Shown here: piece after piece, positions 1,145-9,240 of the stretch
Position numbering within the stretch: position 1 is the stretch's first letter
Layout of the letters: each line of letters opens with the position of its first letter
From: Treponema sp.
GTDB lineage: Bacteria; Spirochaetota; Spirochaetia; Treponematales; Breznakiellaceae
NCBI GenBank assembly: GCA_031257195.1
Contig: JAIRPD010000085.1
Location: 1 to 34,606, forward strand
Direction of reading: 5' to 3'
DNA length: 34,606 nucleotides
The notes under the pieces: model-generated
Seen by the model: the letters and a program-made list of their open reading frames with translations, nothing else
Database searches by the model: none
What the model was told of the DNA's origin: nothing
Translations under genes and position numbers: made by a program

Positions 1145-2455
1145 CTATACGATCCGGCGATCCGCGGCGCCGTCCAGTTCGGCAAAGGCGTCCAGTAAAA
1201 AGGGGTTGAGGAAGAGCAGCCCCTCCGGGTCCAGGGCCGTAATCCCGCCCGCCGTCCCTTCCCCGGCCCGGCCCGGCCCGGGGGGTTCCCCCCGGGGAAG
1301 GCCCCACTTCGCCAGGGTCCGGGGGATCGTCTCCTCCAGGGTTTTGCCAAACCGTTCCTTGAACAGCGCCGGGTCCGGGCCCTCAATGTAGCGGAAGCCC
1401 ATCAACAGGGTTTCCTTTAGCGCCGTGGGCCGGTCCAGTTCCTCGGTAACGGCGCACCCGGCGGGGTCCGCCAAAAAGGCCGCCGCGTCGGGAAGGTAGC
1501 TTACCCGGCGGCCTGTCCCGGTCTTTTCCAGGATGGTCCCCGACGCGGCGGGTCCCAGGCCCAGCCAGTTTTGTACCCGCCAGTACCGGATGTTATGCTT
1601 CCGGCGGTTTTCCGTCCCGCCGTCCGCTTCCCGCCGGGCGAAGTTCGATACCTCGTACTGCTCATACCCCGCCTGTACCAGGGCGTCCCTGCCGGCGATC
1701 CAAAGCCGGTCCGCCTCGTCCTGGTCTGGAAGAAGGCCCCGCCGGCGCGAAGCCCGCGCGGCCAGGGGGGTTCCTTCCTCCACGGTCAGGGCGTACAGGG
1801 AAATGTGGCCGGGGCCGTAGGAAAGGGCTGTCGCGATGTCCCTAAGCAGAATGTCCAGACTTTGTCCCGGAAGGCCGCTCATCAAATCCAGGGAAAGGCC
1901 GGGGCCAAAGATCTCCGCCGCGGCCGCTATCCGCCCCGTCGGCGGGTCCGTCCCGCCCCGGCGGCCCGCCAGCCGCCGGACGGTTCCGTTAAAGCTCTGC
2001 GCCCCCAGGGAAAGGCGGTTTACCCCCTGGTCCGCGCAGGCCCGCAAAAAGGCCTCGTCCGCCGATTCGGGGTTGGCCTCCAGGGTGATTTCCCGCCGGG
2101 CCCCGGGGGGGTCCGACCCGGGGTTCCCGCCGGACAGGTTCCCGGGGGTTCCCAAAAGCGCGGCGATCCCCCCCAGCAGCCGGGCCGCGCCCGCCGCCCC
2201 CAGCAGGGCGGGATCGCCGCCGCCAATGTACACCGTGGGAAAGGTGAGGCCCCCCTCCCCCGGGGTCCCGGCGGTTTCCGCGGCGAGGAGCGCCAGGCGC
2301 CGTTCCGTTTCCCCCAGCAGCGCTCCGGTGTAGGCGTCCAGCAGGCGGTCCCGCCCGGCCGCGTCAAGGCCGCCGGCGGCGCGGGAATAAAAGCCGCAGT
2401 AATCGCACCGGGCCCGGCAGAAGGGTATATGAAAGTACAGGGAAAATTCCGCCAT
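1145..2455 (-). CDS. hemW: Radical SAM haem chaperone HemW-like protein
   Basis: A 436-residue member of the HemN/HemW radical SAM family. The N-terminus has IPFCRARCDYCGF, the CxxxCxxC that binds the 4Fe-4S cluster, followed by YIGGGDPALL (the GGGxP-type SAM-binding region), TLEANPES and LSLGAQSFN. HNIRYWRVQNWLGLGPAASG contains the HNxxYW motif of HemW, which argues for the haem-chaperone branch rather than true coproporphyrinogen dehydrogenase. It is the last gene of the minus-strand unit after two signal-peptidase-like genes, 45 bases downstream of the second. No clear ribosome site precedes the ATG at 2455. Gly/Pro-rich insertions lengthen it slightly beyond the usual ~380 residues. Confidence 0.9.
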   Translation of the reverse strand: MAEFSLYFHIPFCRARCDYCGFYSRAAGGLDAAGRDRLLDAYTGALLGETERRLALLAAETAGTPGEGGLTFPTVYIGGGDPALLGAAGAARLLGGIAALLGTPGNLSGGNPGSDPPGARREITLEANPESADEAFLRACADQGVNRLSLGAQSFNGTVRRLAGRRGGTDPPTGRIAAAAEIFGPGLSLDLMSGLPGQSLDILLRDIATALSYGPGHISLYALTVEEGTPLAARASRRRGLLPDQDEADRLWIAGRDALVQAGYEQYEVSNFARREADGGTENRRKHNIRYWRVQNWLGLGPAASGTILEKTGTGRRVSYLPDAAAFLADPAGCAVTEELDRPTALKETLLMGFRYIEGPDPALFKERFGKTLEETIPRTLAKWGLPRGEPPGPGRAGEGTAGGITALDPEGLLFLNPFLLDAFAELDGAADRRIV

Positions 2456-2500: not shown

Positions 2501-3223
2501 CTAGAACGGTCCCAGGCGGGTCAGGGGCCAGTACCGCGCCAGGGCCCGGCCCGTGATGGAATCCGCCGGTATGGGACCCCAGGTCCGGGAATCGTTGGTA
2601 TTGCCCCGGTCATCGGAAAGGACAAAGCACTCGTTTTCCTTCAGGGTAACGCTGTCCATGGAACCGGAAAAGGGGATAGTCCTGTCCCACAGGGGGGAAA
2701 CCTGGGGAAGTTCGGGGGTGTAGTCCTTTTCGGTAAGCTCGAATTCAACGTACTCGTAGGTTTCCCCCGCGGGTTTTATCCTGACCACATAGTTGTTTAC
2801 GCTCAGCGTATCCCCCGGAAGGCCGATCACCCGTTTAACAAAAACCGTGTCTTCCCGGGGAAAAAAGCTTATCCGCTGGAGGGTAAAAAACCGGACCCCG
2901 GCGTCAAGGAGGATGTGAAGCGGGTTTCGCCGGGAGCCCGCGGACCTGTCCACCAGCACCACCTGGCCCCGGCGAAAGGGCAGGTTCCCCTCGAACCTGT
3001 CCCGGATAATATGGTGCAGGGTAAAGGACAGAAACACAAACCGATCCCCCTCCAAAAGACCGGGGCGCATGGCGTCGCTTTCCAGTGTCCGGTTGGAAAA
3101 AAAGAGCCCGGCGATCACCGTGTGGATGACAAAGAAAATCAACACCCAGACCAGAATAACCCGCACCCGGCGCAGATAGTTTTTCTGGGCCACATAGGAA
3201 TACCGCCGCCACCGATTCGCCAT
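2501..3223 (-). CDS. Signal peptidase I paralogue lacking the catalytic serine
   Basis: A 240-residue S26-family protein with one N-terminal membrane segment (about 20-42). Family boxes can be aligned throughout: LESDAMRPGLLEGD corresponds to the nucleophile box (usual form SxSMxPTL), VFVKRVIGLPGD to the Lys box, and VLSDDRGNTNDSRTWG to the GDNxxxSxDSR box. The residue directly before the Met, which is the nucleophile Ser in active enzymes, is Ala51 (codon at 3071-3073). Lys130 is kept, while the usual GDN is SDD. It follows the canonical lepB by six bases, so the two are co-transcribed and probably partner in the membrane. It may be an inactive or altered paralogue, as known for SpsA beside SpsB in Staphylococcus aureus. 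Confidence 0.85.
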   Translation of the reverse strand: MANRWRRYSYVAQKNYLRRVRVILVWVLIFFVIHTVIAGLFFSNRTLESDAMRPGLLEGDRFVFLSFTLHHIIRDRFEGNLPFRRGQVVLVDRSAGSRRNPLHILLDAGVRFFTLQRISFFPREDTVFVKRVIGLPGDTLSVNNYVVRIKPAGETYEYVEFELTEKDYTPELPQVSPLWDRTIPFSGSMDSVTLKENECFVLSDDRGNTNDSRTWGPIPADSITGRALARYWPLTRLGPF

Positions 3224-3229
3224 GCCGCC

Positions 3230-4210
3230 TTACCGTATCCTTCCCAGCCGGGAGAGGGGCCAGTACTTAAAGGACCCCCGCCCCAGGATTTTGGAAACCT
3301 TCACCGCGCCAAAGAAACGGCCGTCGTGGGAATTGTCCCGGTTATCCCCCAGGGGAAGAATCCGGCCCTCCGGCACATACCACCCCCGGAGCCTTACCGC
3401 CAGGTTCCTGTACCGCGTATCCTGGGGGTAAGCGCTCCTCAGCACGGAAAACCGGGCCTCCTCTTTGGCGAAGTTGTCATGGTAGGAAAGGCCGTACCCG
3501 GCGGCCCGGTCCGTTAGTCCCGCGGGGGGGGCCAGCCCCAGGTCCATGTAGGCCTCGGCTTTTCCCATGGCCTCTATGGCGGGGTACTGGTCCTCCCCCA
3601 CCAGCCGGGAAAGGCGGTGGACAAAGCCCCGGCCGGCCAGGTAGTCCCCCTCCCGCGTCCAGCGGTCCTCCCCCGGGAAGCGGAAGTAAAGTTCCCCCCG
3701 GCGGGTCTCAATTCTGTCCCCCCCAATCCCCGCGGCCCGCTTGATCAGAAAATGAACCCGGGGCTGCCCCGATTCGTTCCGGTCTATGTCCACCAGGGAA
3801 AGGGTAAGCATGTAGATAATCCGCTGGGCTATGTCAAAAAGGGGGCCCCGGGAAAAGTATTCGGGGCTCTCAAAGATGATCACGTCCTCCCGGGCAACCT
3901 TTACGGGGCTGGGGAGCTTGCCCAGGCCGGGAAGGATCTCGGGGCCATAGATTAGCTTGTTCACAAAGATATGATCGTTTTCCAGCAGGGTGTCGTTCAT
4001 CGAGCCCGAGGGAATTTGATAGGCCTGAAAGAGGTACTGGTTAATCAGCAGCACCACCCCGGCGGCCCAGATAAAGGCTTCTATCCAGTCTACCAGGGGA
4101 TTTTTCGCCCGCTGTTTTTCTTTTTTGATCCGCTGAAGCGCCCGCCGCCGGGTTAGAAAACCTTCCGTCGCGATCCGCAGTTTGTCTAAAAAAGCCGGTT
4201 TTCCCGCCAT
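3230..4210 (-). CDS. lepB: Signal peptidase I (canonical)
   Basis: Membrane-bound S26 serine/lysine protease that removes signal peptides from exported proteins. Starting from the ATG at 4210 it has 326 residues. A basic cytoplasmic leader is followed by a membrane segment (about 40-60), then QIPSGSMNDTL with nucleophile Ser70, FLIKRAAGIGGD with the general-base Lys, and LPLGDNRDNSHDGRFFG. A longer-than-usual insert lies between the Lys box and the last box. A TTG at 4246 would add 12 residues, but it overlaps the -35 box of the divergent gene and has only a weak ribosome site, so ATG 4210 is preferred without certainty. It leads an operon with the serine-less paralogue and hemW. Confidence 0.9.
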   Translation of the reverse strand: MAGKPAFLDKLRIATEGFLTRRRALQRIKKEKQRAKNPLVDWIEAFIWAAGVVLLINQYLFQAYQIPSGSMNDTLLENDHIFVNKLIYGPEILPGLGKLPSPVKVAREDVIIFESPEYFSRGPLFDIAQRIIYMLTLSLVDIDRNESGQPRVHFLIKRAAGIGGDRIETRRGELYFRFPGEDRWTREGDYLAGRGFVHRLSRLVGEDQYPAIEAMGKAEAYMDLGLAPPAGLTDRAAGYGLSYHDNFAKEEARFSVLRSAYPQDTRYRNLAVRLRGWYVPEGRILPLGDNRDNSHDGRFFGAVKVSKILGRGSFKYWPLSRLGRIR

Positions 4211-4238: not shown

Positions 4239-4268
4239 TTGAACAATACCCGCCGGAGGGCCTATACT
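4239..4268 (+). promoter_or_regulatory. Promoter of the PEGA/FGE-like gene, leaderless geometry
   Basis: TTGAAC (4239-4244), an 18-base spacer and TATACT (4263-4268) form a good sigma-70 promoter. The ATG of the gene starts at 4275, exactly six bases after the -10 box, so the predicted transcription start is the A of the ATG. No ribosome-binding sequence fits between them. Confidence 0.75.
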
Positions 4269-4274
4269 GACAGC

Positions 4275-5765
4275 ATGTTTCATCGGCGGCCCGAAATCCG
4301 GGGGGAAGACCAGGTAACGTTTAAGCCTATTCTGGGGGTCGAGCCCGGCCTGTACCTGGCTTTTCTCTACGGGGCGATCCTCCTGGGGGTCCTCTTTTTC
4401 GCGTTGATCTTTCCGGGGATCGCCAGGCCCGGAAGCCTGGGGATCTTCCGGTCCGAGCCCTCTGGGGCGGCGGTACGGGTGGACGGCGTTACCATGGGAA
4501 CCACCCCCTGCGAGGTCTTTATCCCCCGGGGAAAGCGGGTGATAGAATTTGTCCTCCCCGGTTTTAACCCCGACCGGAAAGAAATTGAGGTGAAGGGAAG
4601 CCTCTTCGCCTCGGCCTTTTTTCCCCGGCGGGTTTCCCTGCGGGGCGTCCTGGTTTCCCCGGATCCCCCGGCGGCGTTCGCGGCGGCGGCGGCGGAATAT
4701 ATCCACTGGTCCTTCGCCGGGGAACCCTCCGAGGTTTACCAGATACCCCAGGTCCTTTCCGAGGGGGCCTACCGCGCGGGTCCCGCCGCCAGGGATCCCG
4801 CGGTCCGGGGGGCGTTAAAAAACATTTGGGGGAATTCCCTCCGTTACGCCGTTACCCGGGCCTCCACCCGGGACCTGATCCGGGCGAAGTTCCTCCTGGA
4901 CAACGGCGGCCAAAGCCCCTCGCCCCTAAGCCTGATCCGCTCAATCCAGGAAGCCGCCGCCCTGGTGGGGGCCAGTCCCGGCGCCGCCCCCTGGCTGGGG
5001 GAATTCCTTTCCGGGGACGCGGCCGCCGCCTGGGCGGCCTCCCCCTGGACCGCCGCTTCCCGCGGGGAGGGGCGGACCGGTCCCCTGGACGCGGGTTTTC
5101 AAGTGCCCGGCGCGCCCACGGTGGAGGGCCTTGGTTTTGTTTCCCTGGGCCCGGGCTACCTGGAGCGTTACGGTCAAAGGGAAACCATGCCCCCCCTCTA
5201 CATCGCCCGGGAACCGGTGTCCCTGACCGCGTGGAACGCGTTTACCGCGGAAAACCCCTTCTGGTCGGCGGATAACCGGGAGGCGTTGATCGCCGGGGGT
5301 CTCGCGGGGGAAGACTACCTTGTCCCGGTGGATACCCCCGCCTTTCCCTCCCCCCCCGCGCCGGGCGTCTCCTGGTACGCCGCGGCGGCCTACTGCGAGT
5401 GGCTTACGGGCAAACTTCCCCCGATTCTTTCCGGCTGGGAAGTCCGGCTGCCCTCCGAGGCGGAATGGGAATTCGCCGCCCCCCGGTGGCCCGGCCCCCT
5501 GGGCCAGCTGTGGGAATGGTGCGGCGGCGTTTACGCCCCCCTGGACTTCTTTCCCCTTTCCGGGGAAGCCCAGGCCGCCCTGGAGGCGGCCTTTGACGCG
5601 GCCTCCGTCCCGGCGCCGGAGCGGCCCGTCCGGGGCGGTTCCTGGATAAATCCCCCGGGCTCGGTAAACACCTCCGACCGGGGATCCCTGCCGCCGGATT
5701 GTTCCTCCCCCTTTGTGGGTTTTCGGCCCGTAATAGTCCCCCGGCCCGGAAACGGGGGAGAATAA
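4275..5765 (+). CDS. Membrane-anchored PEGA and FGE-sulfatase-like domain protein
   Basis: A 496-residue protein. One membrane helix (about 28-48, LYLAFLYGAILLGVLFFAL) is followed by a PEGA domain (about 55-120; SEPSGAAVRVDGVTMGTTPC and IPRGKRVIEF). After a helical Ala-rich middle, residues about 305-495 form an FGE/SUMF1-like C-type-lectin fold, with VSWYAAAAYCEWLTGK, RLPSEAEWEFAA, LWEWCGGVY, RPVRGGSW and a final GFRPV. The cysteine pair of true formylglycine-generating enzymes is absent near the end, and the usual segment between EFAA and LWEW is shortened, so it is probably a binding module rather than an enzyme. The ATG at 4275 was chosen from the promoter position. It is followed by smpB after two bases. 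Confidence 0.85.
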   Translation: MFHRRPEIRGEDQVTFKPILGVEPGLYLAFLYGAILLGVLFFALIFPGIARPGSLGIFRSEPSGAAVRVDGVTMGTTPCEVFIPRGKRVIEFVLPGFNPDRKEIEVKGSLFASAFFPRRVSLRGVLVSPDPPAAFAAAAAEYIHWSFAGEPSEVYQIPQVLSEGAYRAGPAARDPAVRGALKNIWGNSLRYAVTRASTRDLIRAKFLLDNGGQSPSPLSLIRSIQEAAALVGASPGAAPWLGEFLSGDAAAAWAASPWTAASRGEGRTGPLDAGFQVPGAPTVEGLGFVSLGPGYLERYGQRETMPPLYIAREPVSLTAWNAFTAENPFWSADNREALIAGGLAGEDYLVPVDTPAFPSPPAPGVSWYAAAAYCEWLTGKLPPILSGWEVRLPSEAEWEFAAPRWPGPLGQLWEWCGGVYAPLDFFPLSGEAQAALEAAFDAASVPAPERPVRGGSWINPPGSVNTSDRGSLPPDCSSPFVGFRPVIVPRPGNGGE

Positions 5766-5767
5766 CC

Positions 5768-6232
5768 GTGGCCGGCGGGGGGGTCAAGGTAATCGCGGTA
5801 AACCGCAAAGCCCGGTTCGACTATACCGTGGATGACACCTACGAATGCGGCATAGAACTTTTGGGAACCGAGGTAAAATCCTTCCGGGACGGGAGGATCT
5901 CCTTTCCCGACGCCTGGGCGGAGGTGGCCGGGGGGGAGGTCTGGCTTCGCTCCCTGCGAATCGCGGAAAATCCCTTTTCCTCGATTTTTAACCATGACCC
6001 GGACCGGAAAAAAAAACTCCTCCTCCACAGGGAGGAGATAAAGCGGGTCGCCCGGAAAACCGAGGAAAAGGGCTATACCCTTATTCCTCTGTCGTTTTAC
6101 TTTAAAAACGGCCGGGTCAAGGTGGAGCTGGGGCTCTGTAAGGGCAAAAAGCAGTACGATAAGCGGGCGGATATCCGGGACCGGGACATAAAGCGGGAAG
6201 TGGCCAGGGAATTCAAGGGTAAGCTCAGTTAA
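5768..6232 (+). CDS. smpB: SsrA-binding protein SmpB
   Basis: A 154-residue tmRNA partner for rescuing stalled ribosomes. Recognisable family blocks are VIAVNRKARFDYTVDDTYECG, the GIELLGTEVKSFRDGRISFPDAW core, and the C-terminal LGLCKGKKQYDKRADIRDRD followed by a basic tail ending FKGKLS. The start is GTG at 5768, two bases after the upstream stop, with GGGGGAG seven bases before it; upstream in-frame codons run inside the previous gene. The size is normal for the family. It is translationally linked to the PEGA/FGE-like gene, an unusual partner with no obvious functional connection. A 22-bp palindromic repeat array begins at its last codons. Confidence 0.95.
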   Translation: MAGGGVKVIAVNRKARFDYTVDDTYECGIELLGTEVKSFRDGRISFPDAWAEVAGGEVWLRSLRIAENPFSSIFNHDPDRKKKLLLHREEIKRVARKTEEKGYTLIPLSFYFKNGRVKVELGLCKGKKQYDKRADIRDRDIKREVAREFKGKLS

Positions 6233-6326
6233 AGCCTAGCTTTAACTGGGTTAAAGCCGCGCTTTAACTGGGTTAAAACCTAGCTTTATCTGGGTTAAAG
6301 CGGTGTTTTACCTGGGCGAAGGTCCT
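6217..6326. repeat. 22-bp palindromic tandem repeat array after smpB
   Basis: Three clear 22-bp units start at 6239, 6261 and 6283. A decayed unit lies on either side (6217 and 6305), and the first of these contains the smpB stop codon. The unit core CTTTAAC-TGG-GTTAAAG is a perfect 7-bp inverted repeat. The junctions between units (AAAGC-CTA-GCTTT) form a second set of inverted repeats, so alternative hairpins are possible. The array sits between the convergent ends of smpB and the FtsB-like gene and may end or stabilise transcripts from both sides. It lacks the T-run of a classical terminator. Confidence 0.85.
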
Positions 6327-7068: not shown

Positions 7069-9240
7069 ATGGCTGGAAAAAACGATCCTTCGATATACGA
7101 TGACAGAAGCACCATCGGTTCCTCCGATGAACTGGATGAATACGGGGTGTGGGTAAAGAGCGAGCCGGAGGATCTGGGGGCTTCACTGCCCGAAATTGGG
7201 GACCTGCCGGACCTTGACGCCGGGTTCGTCAAGGACCTGGATCCGCCGGATTTTTCCGGCGACGCCTTTCCCGGCCTGGACGAGCCGGAAATTCCCGACA
7301 GCCCCGCGCCGGATTTTGGCGATCTGGACTTTGACGATCTGGGGCTGGATAACCCCTTTGGGGAGGCCCCCGGCGAGGGGAATACGCCGGACGGCCCGGC
7401 CCCGGACGCGGAGGCCCTGGGGATTCCGCCGCCGGATCCCACTCCCGAAACCGGCGTGGAGGCCGCGGCGGAAAACGGGGATGAGGAGGATTTCGCCGAA
7501 ATGCCCCTGGTGGACCTTATCGGTTTTGAGGATCCAATCAGCGGGGAGCCCGCCATGGAAGATGAGGAGCCCCCCCCGGGGGGGGAACCGGGGAAGGATC
7601 TTGCCGGGGAGGGTTTTACGAAAACGGGGTTCCCCACGGAAGAAGCCGCCCGTTTTTCCGCCGCCCCCCCCTCCCCTAACGCCGTGGAACTTTCCAATCA
7701 GCTCCTGATGAAGATCGCCGATGAGCTTTCCTCCATAAAAACCGAACTGTCCAGCCTTAAAAAGGAACTCGCCGTGGTCCGGGTGGAACCGAAGGGCGAG
7801 GGAACCGAGGCCAAGGGCGGCGGTTTCTTTGACGAGGAGGAGGATGAAAAAATCGCCCTAACGGGGGACGAGATGGACACCATCCTCAACACGGCTAATT
7901 TTACCGGGGAAACCGGCGCCGGCGAGGCCATACATGACGGGCTTCCCCCGGACGCGGGGAGCGCCGCCGGCTTGGATGATCTTTCCGGTTCGGATATCAG
8001 TCCCGGTCTGGAAAGCGCCCCCGCTCAGGATGATTTCTCCGATCCGAGCGGCCTTACCGGCCAGGATGATCTTTCCGGCTTGGACGCCCTTTCCGGCCTG
8101 GAGGGCTCCCCCGCTCAGGATGAACTTTCCGATCCGAGCGGCCTTACCGGCCAGGATGATCTTTCCGGCTTGGACGCCCTTTCCGGCCTGGAGAGTTCCC
8201 CCACCCAGGACGATTTCTCCGATCTGAGCGGTCTTACCGGCCTGGACGATCTTTCCGGTTCGGACGCCCTTTCCGGCCTGGAGAGTTCCCCCGCTCAGGA
8301 TGATTTCTCCGATCTGGGCGACGTTACCGGCCTGGATGATCTTTCCGGATTGGATACCATTCCCGGCCTGGACGAAGCCTTCCTTTCCGATGGGGTGGAC
8401 ATCCTCGGCGAAAACCCCGCGGAAGAACCCCCCGGCCCGGAAAACCTTACCTTTGAGGAAGTGAACATCCCCGGCCTGGACGGGGAGATCAGGGAAGAGG
8501 ACGCCCTCAAAGACCTGGACGAGGATTTTGACATGGCCATGAATTTTGGCCAGAACGAGCCGGGCGGCCCGGAGGAATCGCCGGATGAACTGGGGAAACT
8601 CCAGGAACCGGAGGCGCCGCCCCTGAGCGCCGCGCCGGAGGACAGCAGCTACCTGGAAGAGGATCCCCTGAGCCTGGGGGCGGAGGACTCCATCGATCTT
8701 TCCGGGGCGGTGATCGATGAGCCGGACCTGAGCGCCGGAATAATGGAAAATCCCGTAACCGAGCCGGCGATTGAAAACATCTCGATCGATCTTGACATGG
8801 AAGATTCCACCGGTTCGGGGGAAAACTTTTTAAGCATGCCCGGGACGGGGCCGGATGATTTTACCTTTGAGACCGAGGACACCATGGAGATCCCCCCCCC
8901 TGACGGCGGCGGGGAAGATTTTAACCTTCCCGGCAAAGACCTGGAAACCCTGAACCTTTCCGCGGGGGAAACCATTCCGGGGGAGGACTTGCTCAAAGAA
9001 GACGCCCCCCCGCCTCCGGCGGCGGAGTCTTTTCCGGCGGCCCCGGGCGCGGCGGTTTCCCCGGCGGCGGCGGCCCTGGGGGAAGAGATCCCTTCCAATC
9101 TTAAACGGGAATTGAAGACGGTGCTTTCCTACATGGACCGGCTTCTGGAATCCCTGCCGGAGGAAAAGATCGAGGAATTCGCCAAGTCCGAATATTTTGA
9201 CACCTACAAAAAACTCTTTGAGGAATTGGGATTGGTATAA
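7069..9240 (+). CDS. Large acidic repeat protein of unknown function
   Basis: A 723-residue, strongly acidic, cytoplasmic-looking protein without signal peptide or membrane segment. The N-terminal block (1-45) contains DELDEYGVWVKSEPEDL and looks like a conserved motif rather than repeat. Residues about 45-200 are a low-complexity region rich in Asp, Gly and Pro. Residues about 205-235 (LLMKIADELSSIKTELSSLK) are a likely coiled coil. Residues 303-422 are four 30-residue repeats, and a folded helical end follows (about 675-723, LSYMDRLLESLPEEKIEEF). Ribosome site GGGAG at 7058. It is the first gene of an operon with an unknown protein and two DUF115 proteins. Such architecture suits a scaffold or hub; no function is recognised. 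Confidence 0.85.
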   Translation: MAGKNDPSIYDDRSTIGSSDELDEYGVWVKSEPEDLGASLPEIGDLPDLDAGFVKDLDPPDFSGDAFPGLDEPEIPDSPAPDFGDLDFDDLGLDNPFGEAPGEGNTPDGPAPDAEALGIPPPDPTPETGVEAAAENGDEEDFAEMPLVDLIGFEDPISGEPAMEDEEPPPGGEPGKDLAGEGFTKTGFPTEEAARFSAAPPSPNAVELSNQLLMKIADELSSIKTELSSLKKELAVVRVEPKGEGTEAKGGGFFDEEEDEKIALTGDEMDTILNTANFTGETGAGEAIHDGLPPDAGSAAGLDDLSGSDISPGLESAPAQDDFSDPSGLTGQDDLSGLDALSGLEGSPAQDELSDPSGLTGQDDLSGLDALSGLESSPTQDDFSDLSGLTGLDDLSGSDALSGLESSPAQDDFSDLGDVTGLDDLSGLDTIPGLDEAFLSDGVDILGENPAEEPPGPENLTFEEVNIPGLDGEIREEDALKDLDEDFDMAMNFGQNEPGGPEESPDELGKLQEPEAPPLSAAPEDSSYLEEDPLSLGAEDSIDLSGAVIDEPDLSAGIMENPVTEPAIENISIDLDMEDSTGSGENFLSMPGTGPDDFTFETEDTMEIPPPDGGGEDFNLPGKDLETLNLSAGETIPGEDLLKEDAPPPPAAESFPAAPGAAVSPAAAALGEEIPSNLKRELKTVLSYMDRLLESLPEEKIEEFAKSEYFDTYKKLFEELGLV
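7975..8334 (+). repeat. Four in-frame 90-bp repeats in the acidic protein gene
   Basis: Four complete 90-bp units start at 7975, 8065, 8155 and 8245 and encode 30 residues each, with the pattern DDLSGxDAxSGLExSPxQD followed by a short F/LSD.SGLTG stretch. A fifth partial unit begins at 8335 and fades after DDLSGLDTIPGLD. Units 2 and 3 are the most alike, which suggests recent copying. The units are acidic and contain no Lys or Arg. Confidence 0.9.

What the first reader, a model, noticed from the sequence alone, without database searches (positions are those of the whole stretch)
2501..4210. Serine-less signal peptidase paralogue fused in operon with active LepB
The gene at 2501-3223 keeps the S26 fold motifs and the catalytic Lys130 but has Ala51 (GCC at 3071-3073) where the nucleophile Ser belongs. 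The neighbour six bases upstream has a full IPSGSM box. The pair recalls SpsA/SpsB of S. aureus. The protein may be a regulatory or chaperone subunit, or may use the nearby Ser49 instead. Strict retention of Lys but not Ser is unusual.
Basis: partly seen in the sequence, partly recalled or inferred. Interest (0 to 1): 0.62.

Follow-up and report, generated by a model that had tools for sequence, protein, structure and literature searches.

The report
Degenerate signal peptidase beside active LepB
In gut-dwelling relatives of Treponema, a gene always sitting next to the enzyme that trims export tags from proteins encodes a look-alike whose cutting site has worn away in different ways in different branches, so it most likely binds or escorts proteins rather than cutting them.

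Summary
Window 2501-3223(-) encodes a 240-aa LepB-like protein with Ala51 at the nucleophile position and Lys130 kept; a full Ser70/Lys157 LepB lies 6 bp upstream. Ala51 is neither unique nor fixed. Among 134 orthologues of the family, position 51 is T67, S41, A21, G2, I2, N1 and changes at an average rate (29 changes; column median 27), while Lys130 is kept in 133. The adjacent LepB keeps Ser and Lys in 137/137 and adjoins in 131/131 testable loci. Ser49 is not a conserved substitute nucleophile. Syntenic orthologues keep the dyad in much of one sister family (11/19) but lack the Lys in two others (0/33, 0/16). I read it as an old second signal peptidase that lost catalysis but kept fold and cleft, probably a LepB-associated substrate-binding subunit; that role is inferred. 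Inactive SPase homologues are known (SpsA, SipA): a new variant of a known kind.

The parts
2501..3223 (-). degenerate signal peptidase paralogue (240 aa): N-terminal membrane helix plus periplasmic S26 domain
   Evidence: AlphaFold2 pLDDT 86; E. coli SPase Z 15.4
3071..3073 (-). GCC, Ala51, nucleophile position (E. coli Ser90)
2834..2836 (-). Lys130, general-base position (E. coli Lys145)
2615..2617 (-). Ser203 in box E, at the position of invariant E. coli Gly272
   Evidence: PMC4049620
3230..4210 (-). active-type LepB (326 aa) with Ser70, Lys157, GDNRDN
   Evidence: 137/137 Ser and Lys
3224..3229 (-). 6-bp gap; LepB stop TAA overlaps an AAGG (Shine-Dalgarno-like) before the paralogue ATG
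1145..2455 (-). HemW/HemN-like radical SAM gene, conserved downstream neighbour
4239..5765 (+). PEGA + FGE-sulfatase-domain protein, divergent upstream neighbour where lepB is present
5699..6232 (+). smpB, anchoring neighbour of the syntenic block

Best explanation
The gene is an ancient second type I signal peptidase of the Treponematales that has lost proteolytic activity in this family while keeping the fold, the membrane anchor and much of the signal-peptide cleft. Shown: the nucleophile column drifts, the box-E Gly is replaced in every family member, Lys130 is frozen, and the gene stays in tandem with a fully active-type LepB. Inferred: it is made together with LepB and works without cutting, binding signal peptides or clients at the outer face of the inner membrane and presenting them to, or regulating, LepB. 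Lys130 is probably kept for a structural or hydrogen-bonding role next to Ser203/Thr209 rather than as a catalytic base.
For: Position 51 is T/S/A/G/I/N with 29 parsimony changes (52nd percentile of columns) against 1 for Lys130 and 0 for Met52, Arg131, Asp204, Asp211. Ser/not-Ser flips at least 15 times within the family. Box-E Gly is Ser/Ala in 133/133 family members, including 41/41 with Ser+Lys, but Gly in 10/11 dyad-intact orthologues of sister family f5; any side chain there is said to clash with the catalytic Lys in E. coli SPase (PMC4049620). Partner LepB keeps Ser 137/137, Lys 137/137 and box-E Gly. LepB immediately upstream on the same strand in 131/131 testable loci, mostly within -4..30 bp. 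The gene is present in 195/198 near-complete genomes of the order. Fold matches E. coli SPase (Z 15.4) and inactive SipA (Z 14.8). Met52 (E. coli Met91) 134/134 and the aromatic-aliphatic pair 128-129 are kept.
Against: No assay and no interaction data. 81% of family members have Ser or Thr at 51 with Lys, so some could cleave. Lys130 retention is what a catalytic base would also show. Correlation of evolutionary distances does not single out LepB as partner (partial r 0.44 with LepB against 0.34 with neighbour HemW). In sister family f3 and part of f4/f5 the gene is not next to lepB, so its role need not involve LepB there. The structure model gave no coordinates here, so Lys130 geometry was not measured.
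Confidence: 0.55

Rival explanations
1. A client-specific, SipA-like escort that does not work through LepB: it binds particular exported peptides in its cleft and helps their assembly; the tandem position is only history.
For: SipA lacks both catalytic residues, keeps the cleft and is essential for pilus assembly (PMC4049620); the model matches SipA 4n31 at Z 14.8. In f3, f2 and parts of f4/f5 the gene sits between smpB and hemW without lepB.
Against: In this family the LepB tandem is kept in 131/131 testable loci with near-zero spacing; no client gene was seen among the immediate neighbours.
Confidence: 0.22
2. A still active protease with a relaxed nucleophile: Ser or Thr at 51 with Lys130 cleaves a narrow substrate set, and the Ala/Gly/Ile/Asn lineages, including the window, lost it secondarily.
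For: Lys 133/134; Ser or Thr in 108/134; orthologues in f5 and f2 have full Ser-Lys and mostly a GDN-type box E.
Against: Site 51 changes at the average rate, hydroxyl/no-hydroxyl at least 14 times within the family; box-E Gly lost even in every Ser-Lys member; the Ser88 position is Asn in 75%.
Confidence: 0.18
3. A decaying pseudogene or a sequencing/assembly error in this draft genome.
For: Draft of 135 contigs; loss of an active-site residue.
Against: Full ORF; 22 columns invariant across 33 divergent family members; Ala shared by near relatives; gene present in 195/198 near-complete genomes of the order.
Confidence: 0.02

Closest known systems
Staphylococcus aureus SpsA (inactive SPase homologue paired with SpsB)
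   Same: LepB-fold paralogue without catalytic competence alongside an active SPase; described as inactive and dispensable (PMC12445088)
   Different: SpsA lacks two conserved catalytic residues; here Lys is kept in 133/134 and the nucleophile and box-E Gly are lost; found across an order of Spirochaetota; gene order (active first) differs from the spsA-spsB order I recall
Streptococcus pyogenes SipA
   Same: SPase fold, cleft conserved, no catalytic dyad, also lacks box-E Gly272 (Asn140) (PMC4049620); structural match Z 14.8
   Different: SipA has Asp/Gly in place of Ser/Lys and sits in a pilus gene cluster with sortase and pilins; here the neighbours are lepB and hemW
Type I signal peptidase LepB/SPase I (S26)
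   Same: Pfam PF10502, membrane helix, boxes B-E, Met91, Arg146, Asp280 and Arg282 equivalents
   Different: no fixed Ser, no box-E Gly, box-B IPSGSM replaced by LEN(D/N)xM-type motifs

Membership tests
Catalytic type I signal peptidase (S26A, LepB) | S26 sequence domain | tested here: met
   PF10502 E=1.5e-25; TIGR02227 74.4 bits over cutoff 47
Catalytic type I signal peptidase (S26A, LepB) | SPase fold | tested here: met
   AF2 model, pLDDT 86; E. coli SPase 1t7d Z 15.4, rmsd 2.8, 154 aligned
Catalytic type I signal peptidase (S26A, LepB) | nucleophile Ser in box B | tested here: not met
   Ala51 in window; Ser in only 41/134 orthologues
Catalytic type I signal peptidase (S26A, LepB) | general-base Lys in box D | tested here: met
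   Lys130; 133/134. Lost in f3 and f4 orthologues
Catalytic type I signal peptidase (S26A, LepB) | box E Gly-Asp next to the Lys | tested here: not met
   Ser203 in window; Gly in 0/133 family members
Catalytic type I signal peptidase (S26A, LepB) | cleaves signal peptides | not testable with these tools
   needs an assay
Inactive SPase homologues (SpsA/SipA-like) | SPase fold with dyad not conserved | tested here: met
Inactive SPase homologues (SpsA/SipA-like) | beside an active SPase gene (SpsA) | tested here: met
   131/131 testable family loci
Inactive SPase homologues (SpsA/SipA-like) | pilus gene cluster with sortase (SipA) | tested here: not met
   neighbours are lepB, hemW, PEGA-FGE gene, smpB
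Inactive SPase homologues (SpsA/SipA-like) | non-proteolytic function demonstrated | not testable with these tools
   needs genetics and pull-downs

The most novel reading that the evidence does not exclude
LepB of these spirochaetes is a two-subunit bacterial signal peptidase complex: an active LepB plus an obligate non-catalytic SPase-fold subunit that selects or presents substrates, a bacterial counterpart of accessory subunits of the eukaryotic signal peptidase complex, with the degenerate subunit also persisting in Treponema pathogens whose copy is likely taken for an active peptidase.
Probability: 0.15. Interest if true: 0.78.

Novelty: new variant of a known kind. Interest (0 to 1): 0.45.

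Why it matters
The same orthologous gene can be followed from an intact Ser-Lys enzyme (families f5, f2) to versions that lost the fixed Ser and the box-E Gly (this family), the Lys (f3, including an apparent T. pallidum genome), or the Lys with more (f4). That is a natural series for asking what a signal peptidase fold does without cutting. It also warns that a Lys-less gene in Treponema that family models score as signal peptidase I is probably not a peptidase, which matters when signal peptidase is considered as a drug target.

Tried and rejected
Ser49 as replacement nucleophile: rejected, Asn in 101/134, Ser in 28. A replacement nucleophile in the second SGSM motif (186-189): Ser186 126/134 but Ser188 only 26/134; no supporting geometry, not pursued. 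Stop-codon readthrough making a LepB-paralogue fusion: in the window the two ORFs are in frame with one TAA, but frames are 59/29/43 and stops TAA/TAG/TGA vary across 131 loci, so rejected. Correlated-distance test for partnership with LepB: not discriminating. Fold search in the PDB shows SPase and SipA as well as the wider LexA/UmuD fold, nothing unexpected. Literature: no paper on TP0185 or on this paralogue found in the held library; absence in that library is not proof of novelty. A heterodimer model was not attempted: only single chains can be folded here.

Full report
Observation. Six bases upstream, 3230-4210 encodes a 326-residue LepB with IPSGSM (Ser70), Lys157 and LGDNRDN. A third S26 protein of 148 residues lies elsewhere in the genome (contig C114); its sequence shows a Ser and a Lys in the expected motifs.

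Orthologues. A search of relatives found the gene in 56 of 59 genomes, and a profile search of the order found it in 372 of 394, and in 195 of 198 near-complete ones. Named records close to it are gut Spirochaetaceae MAGs. The genome's family is labelled f1 here; its identification with Breznakiellaceae (Treponematales) is an inference from relatives.

What varies. In 134 non-identical f1 orthologues position 51 is T67, S41, A21, G2, I2, N1; Lys130 is Lys in 133; Met52, Arg131, Glu160, Glu162 and Asp204 never vary. The window's nearest relative (77% identity) also has Ala, and somewhat more distant ones have Thr. The linked LepB has Ser and Lys in 137/137. On a tree built without the two trait columns, position 51 changes at least 29 times in f1 (52nd percentile; median column 27), Lys130 once; Ser/not-Ser changes at least 15 times and hydroxyl/no hydroxyl at least 14. 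Shuffled Ser labels gave a mean of 35, so the state is inherited, but it turns over quickly.

A second lesion. Box E of E. coli SPase reads GDNRDNSADSR; here it is SDDRGNTNDSR, gapless. The residue at the Gly272 position is Ser in 132 and Ala in 2 of 134 f1 sequences, including every one of the 41 that have Ser and Lys (133 f1 sequences in that set). Young et al. [quoted passage not shown] So f1 keeps the Lys but in an altered pocket. The Ser88 position is Asn in 75%. Thr209, Asp211 and Arg213, at the Ser278, Asp280 and Arg282 positions, are kept.

Other families. Orthology is supported by synteny: smpB(-), paralogue(+), hemW(+), with a PEGA/FGE gene and lepB inserted in f1 and parts of f4 and f5 (Pfam). 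Dyad states: f5 mostly Ser-Lys (11/19) with Gly in box E in 10 of those 11; f2 Ser-Lys (one genome); f3 no Lys in 33 (Arg 32, Phe 1), nucleophile S/T/A/V/G/N; f4 no Lys in 16 readable sequences (V, Y, Q, E, L). In one f4 genus the gene is reduced to 184-197 residues in the three loci read. The f3 set includes a 1.1-Mb single-contig genome that I take to be T. pallidum or a very near relative (locus L054, Ser with Arg in place of Lys); from memory its gene is TP0185, annotated signal peptidase I, not checked here. That genome has a separate S26 gene of the LepB type elsewhere; its dyad was not verified (one search did not list it).

Operon. LepB is immediately upstream on the same strand in 131/131 loci where it could be seen; three others have contig ends too near. 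Spacing is mostly -4 to about 30 bp. In the window the LepB TAA overlaps AAGG; SD-like motifs near the stop occur in 65/131 loci. The two frames are not consistently in phase, which argues against a readthrough fusion.

Structure. AlphaFold2 with a 50-sequence alignment restricted to the window and the search for related loci proteins gave pLDDT 86, pTM 0.80, one long N-terminal helix (2-41) and the S26 beta domain. Best structural matches: E. coli SPase 1t7d Z 15.4, rmsd 2.8, 154 residues; SipA 4n31 Z 14.8, rmsd 3.5, 139 residues.

Mechanism. Shown: no conserved nucleophile, altered box E, frozen Lys, frozen tandem with an active-type LepB. Inferred: no cleavage; peptide binding by the conserved cleft; action in the inner membrane with LepB. 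The distance-correlation test did not separate LepB from HemW as partner. A LepB-independent escort like SipA remains a serious rival, more so in f3 where lepB is elsewhere. An active Thr/Ser-Lys enzyme in some lineages is not excluded.

Known context. S. aureus SpsA is described as inactive, lacking two conserved catalytic residues, and dispensable (PMC12445088). SipA lacks the dyad and is essential for pilus assembly (PMC4049620). The present family differs by keeping the Lys in f1, by losing different halves of the dyad in sister families, and by its strict LepB tandem in f1. I found no paper on it in the held library.

Noticed in passing
L054:2079-2933 (1.1-Mb genome, probably T. pallidum): The syntenic orthologue there has Ser at the nucleophile position but Arg instead of the catalytic Lys, so an annotation as active signal peptidase I would be doubtful.
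   Followed up: partly
L059, L060, L061 (one f4 genus): The paralogue after lepB is shortened to 184-197 residues with the Lys and box-E motifs no longer recognisable in the alignment: an extreme stage of erosion.
   Followed up: partly
6228-6316: Four copies of a 22-bp repeat, GTTAAAGCC..GCTTTAACTGG, each with an internal inverted repeat, just after smpB.
   Followed up: no
130-307: 7.7 copies of a 23-bp tandem repeat (CGGCGACCCCCGTCCTTATTACA, 88% matches) in a region without an obvious gene.
   Followed up: no
7967-8372: 4.5 copies of a 90-bp repeat inside the acidic 723-aa ORF 7069-9240 (DDLSGLDALSGLE-type repeats).
   Followed up: no
4239-5765: Divergent gene with PEGA and FGE-sulfatase domains that accompanies lepB where lepB is inserted between smpB and the paralogue.
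   Followed up: partly
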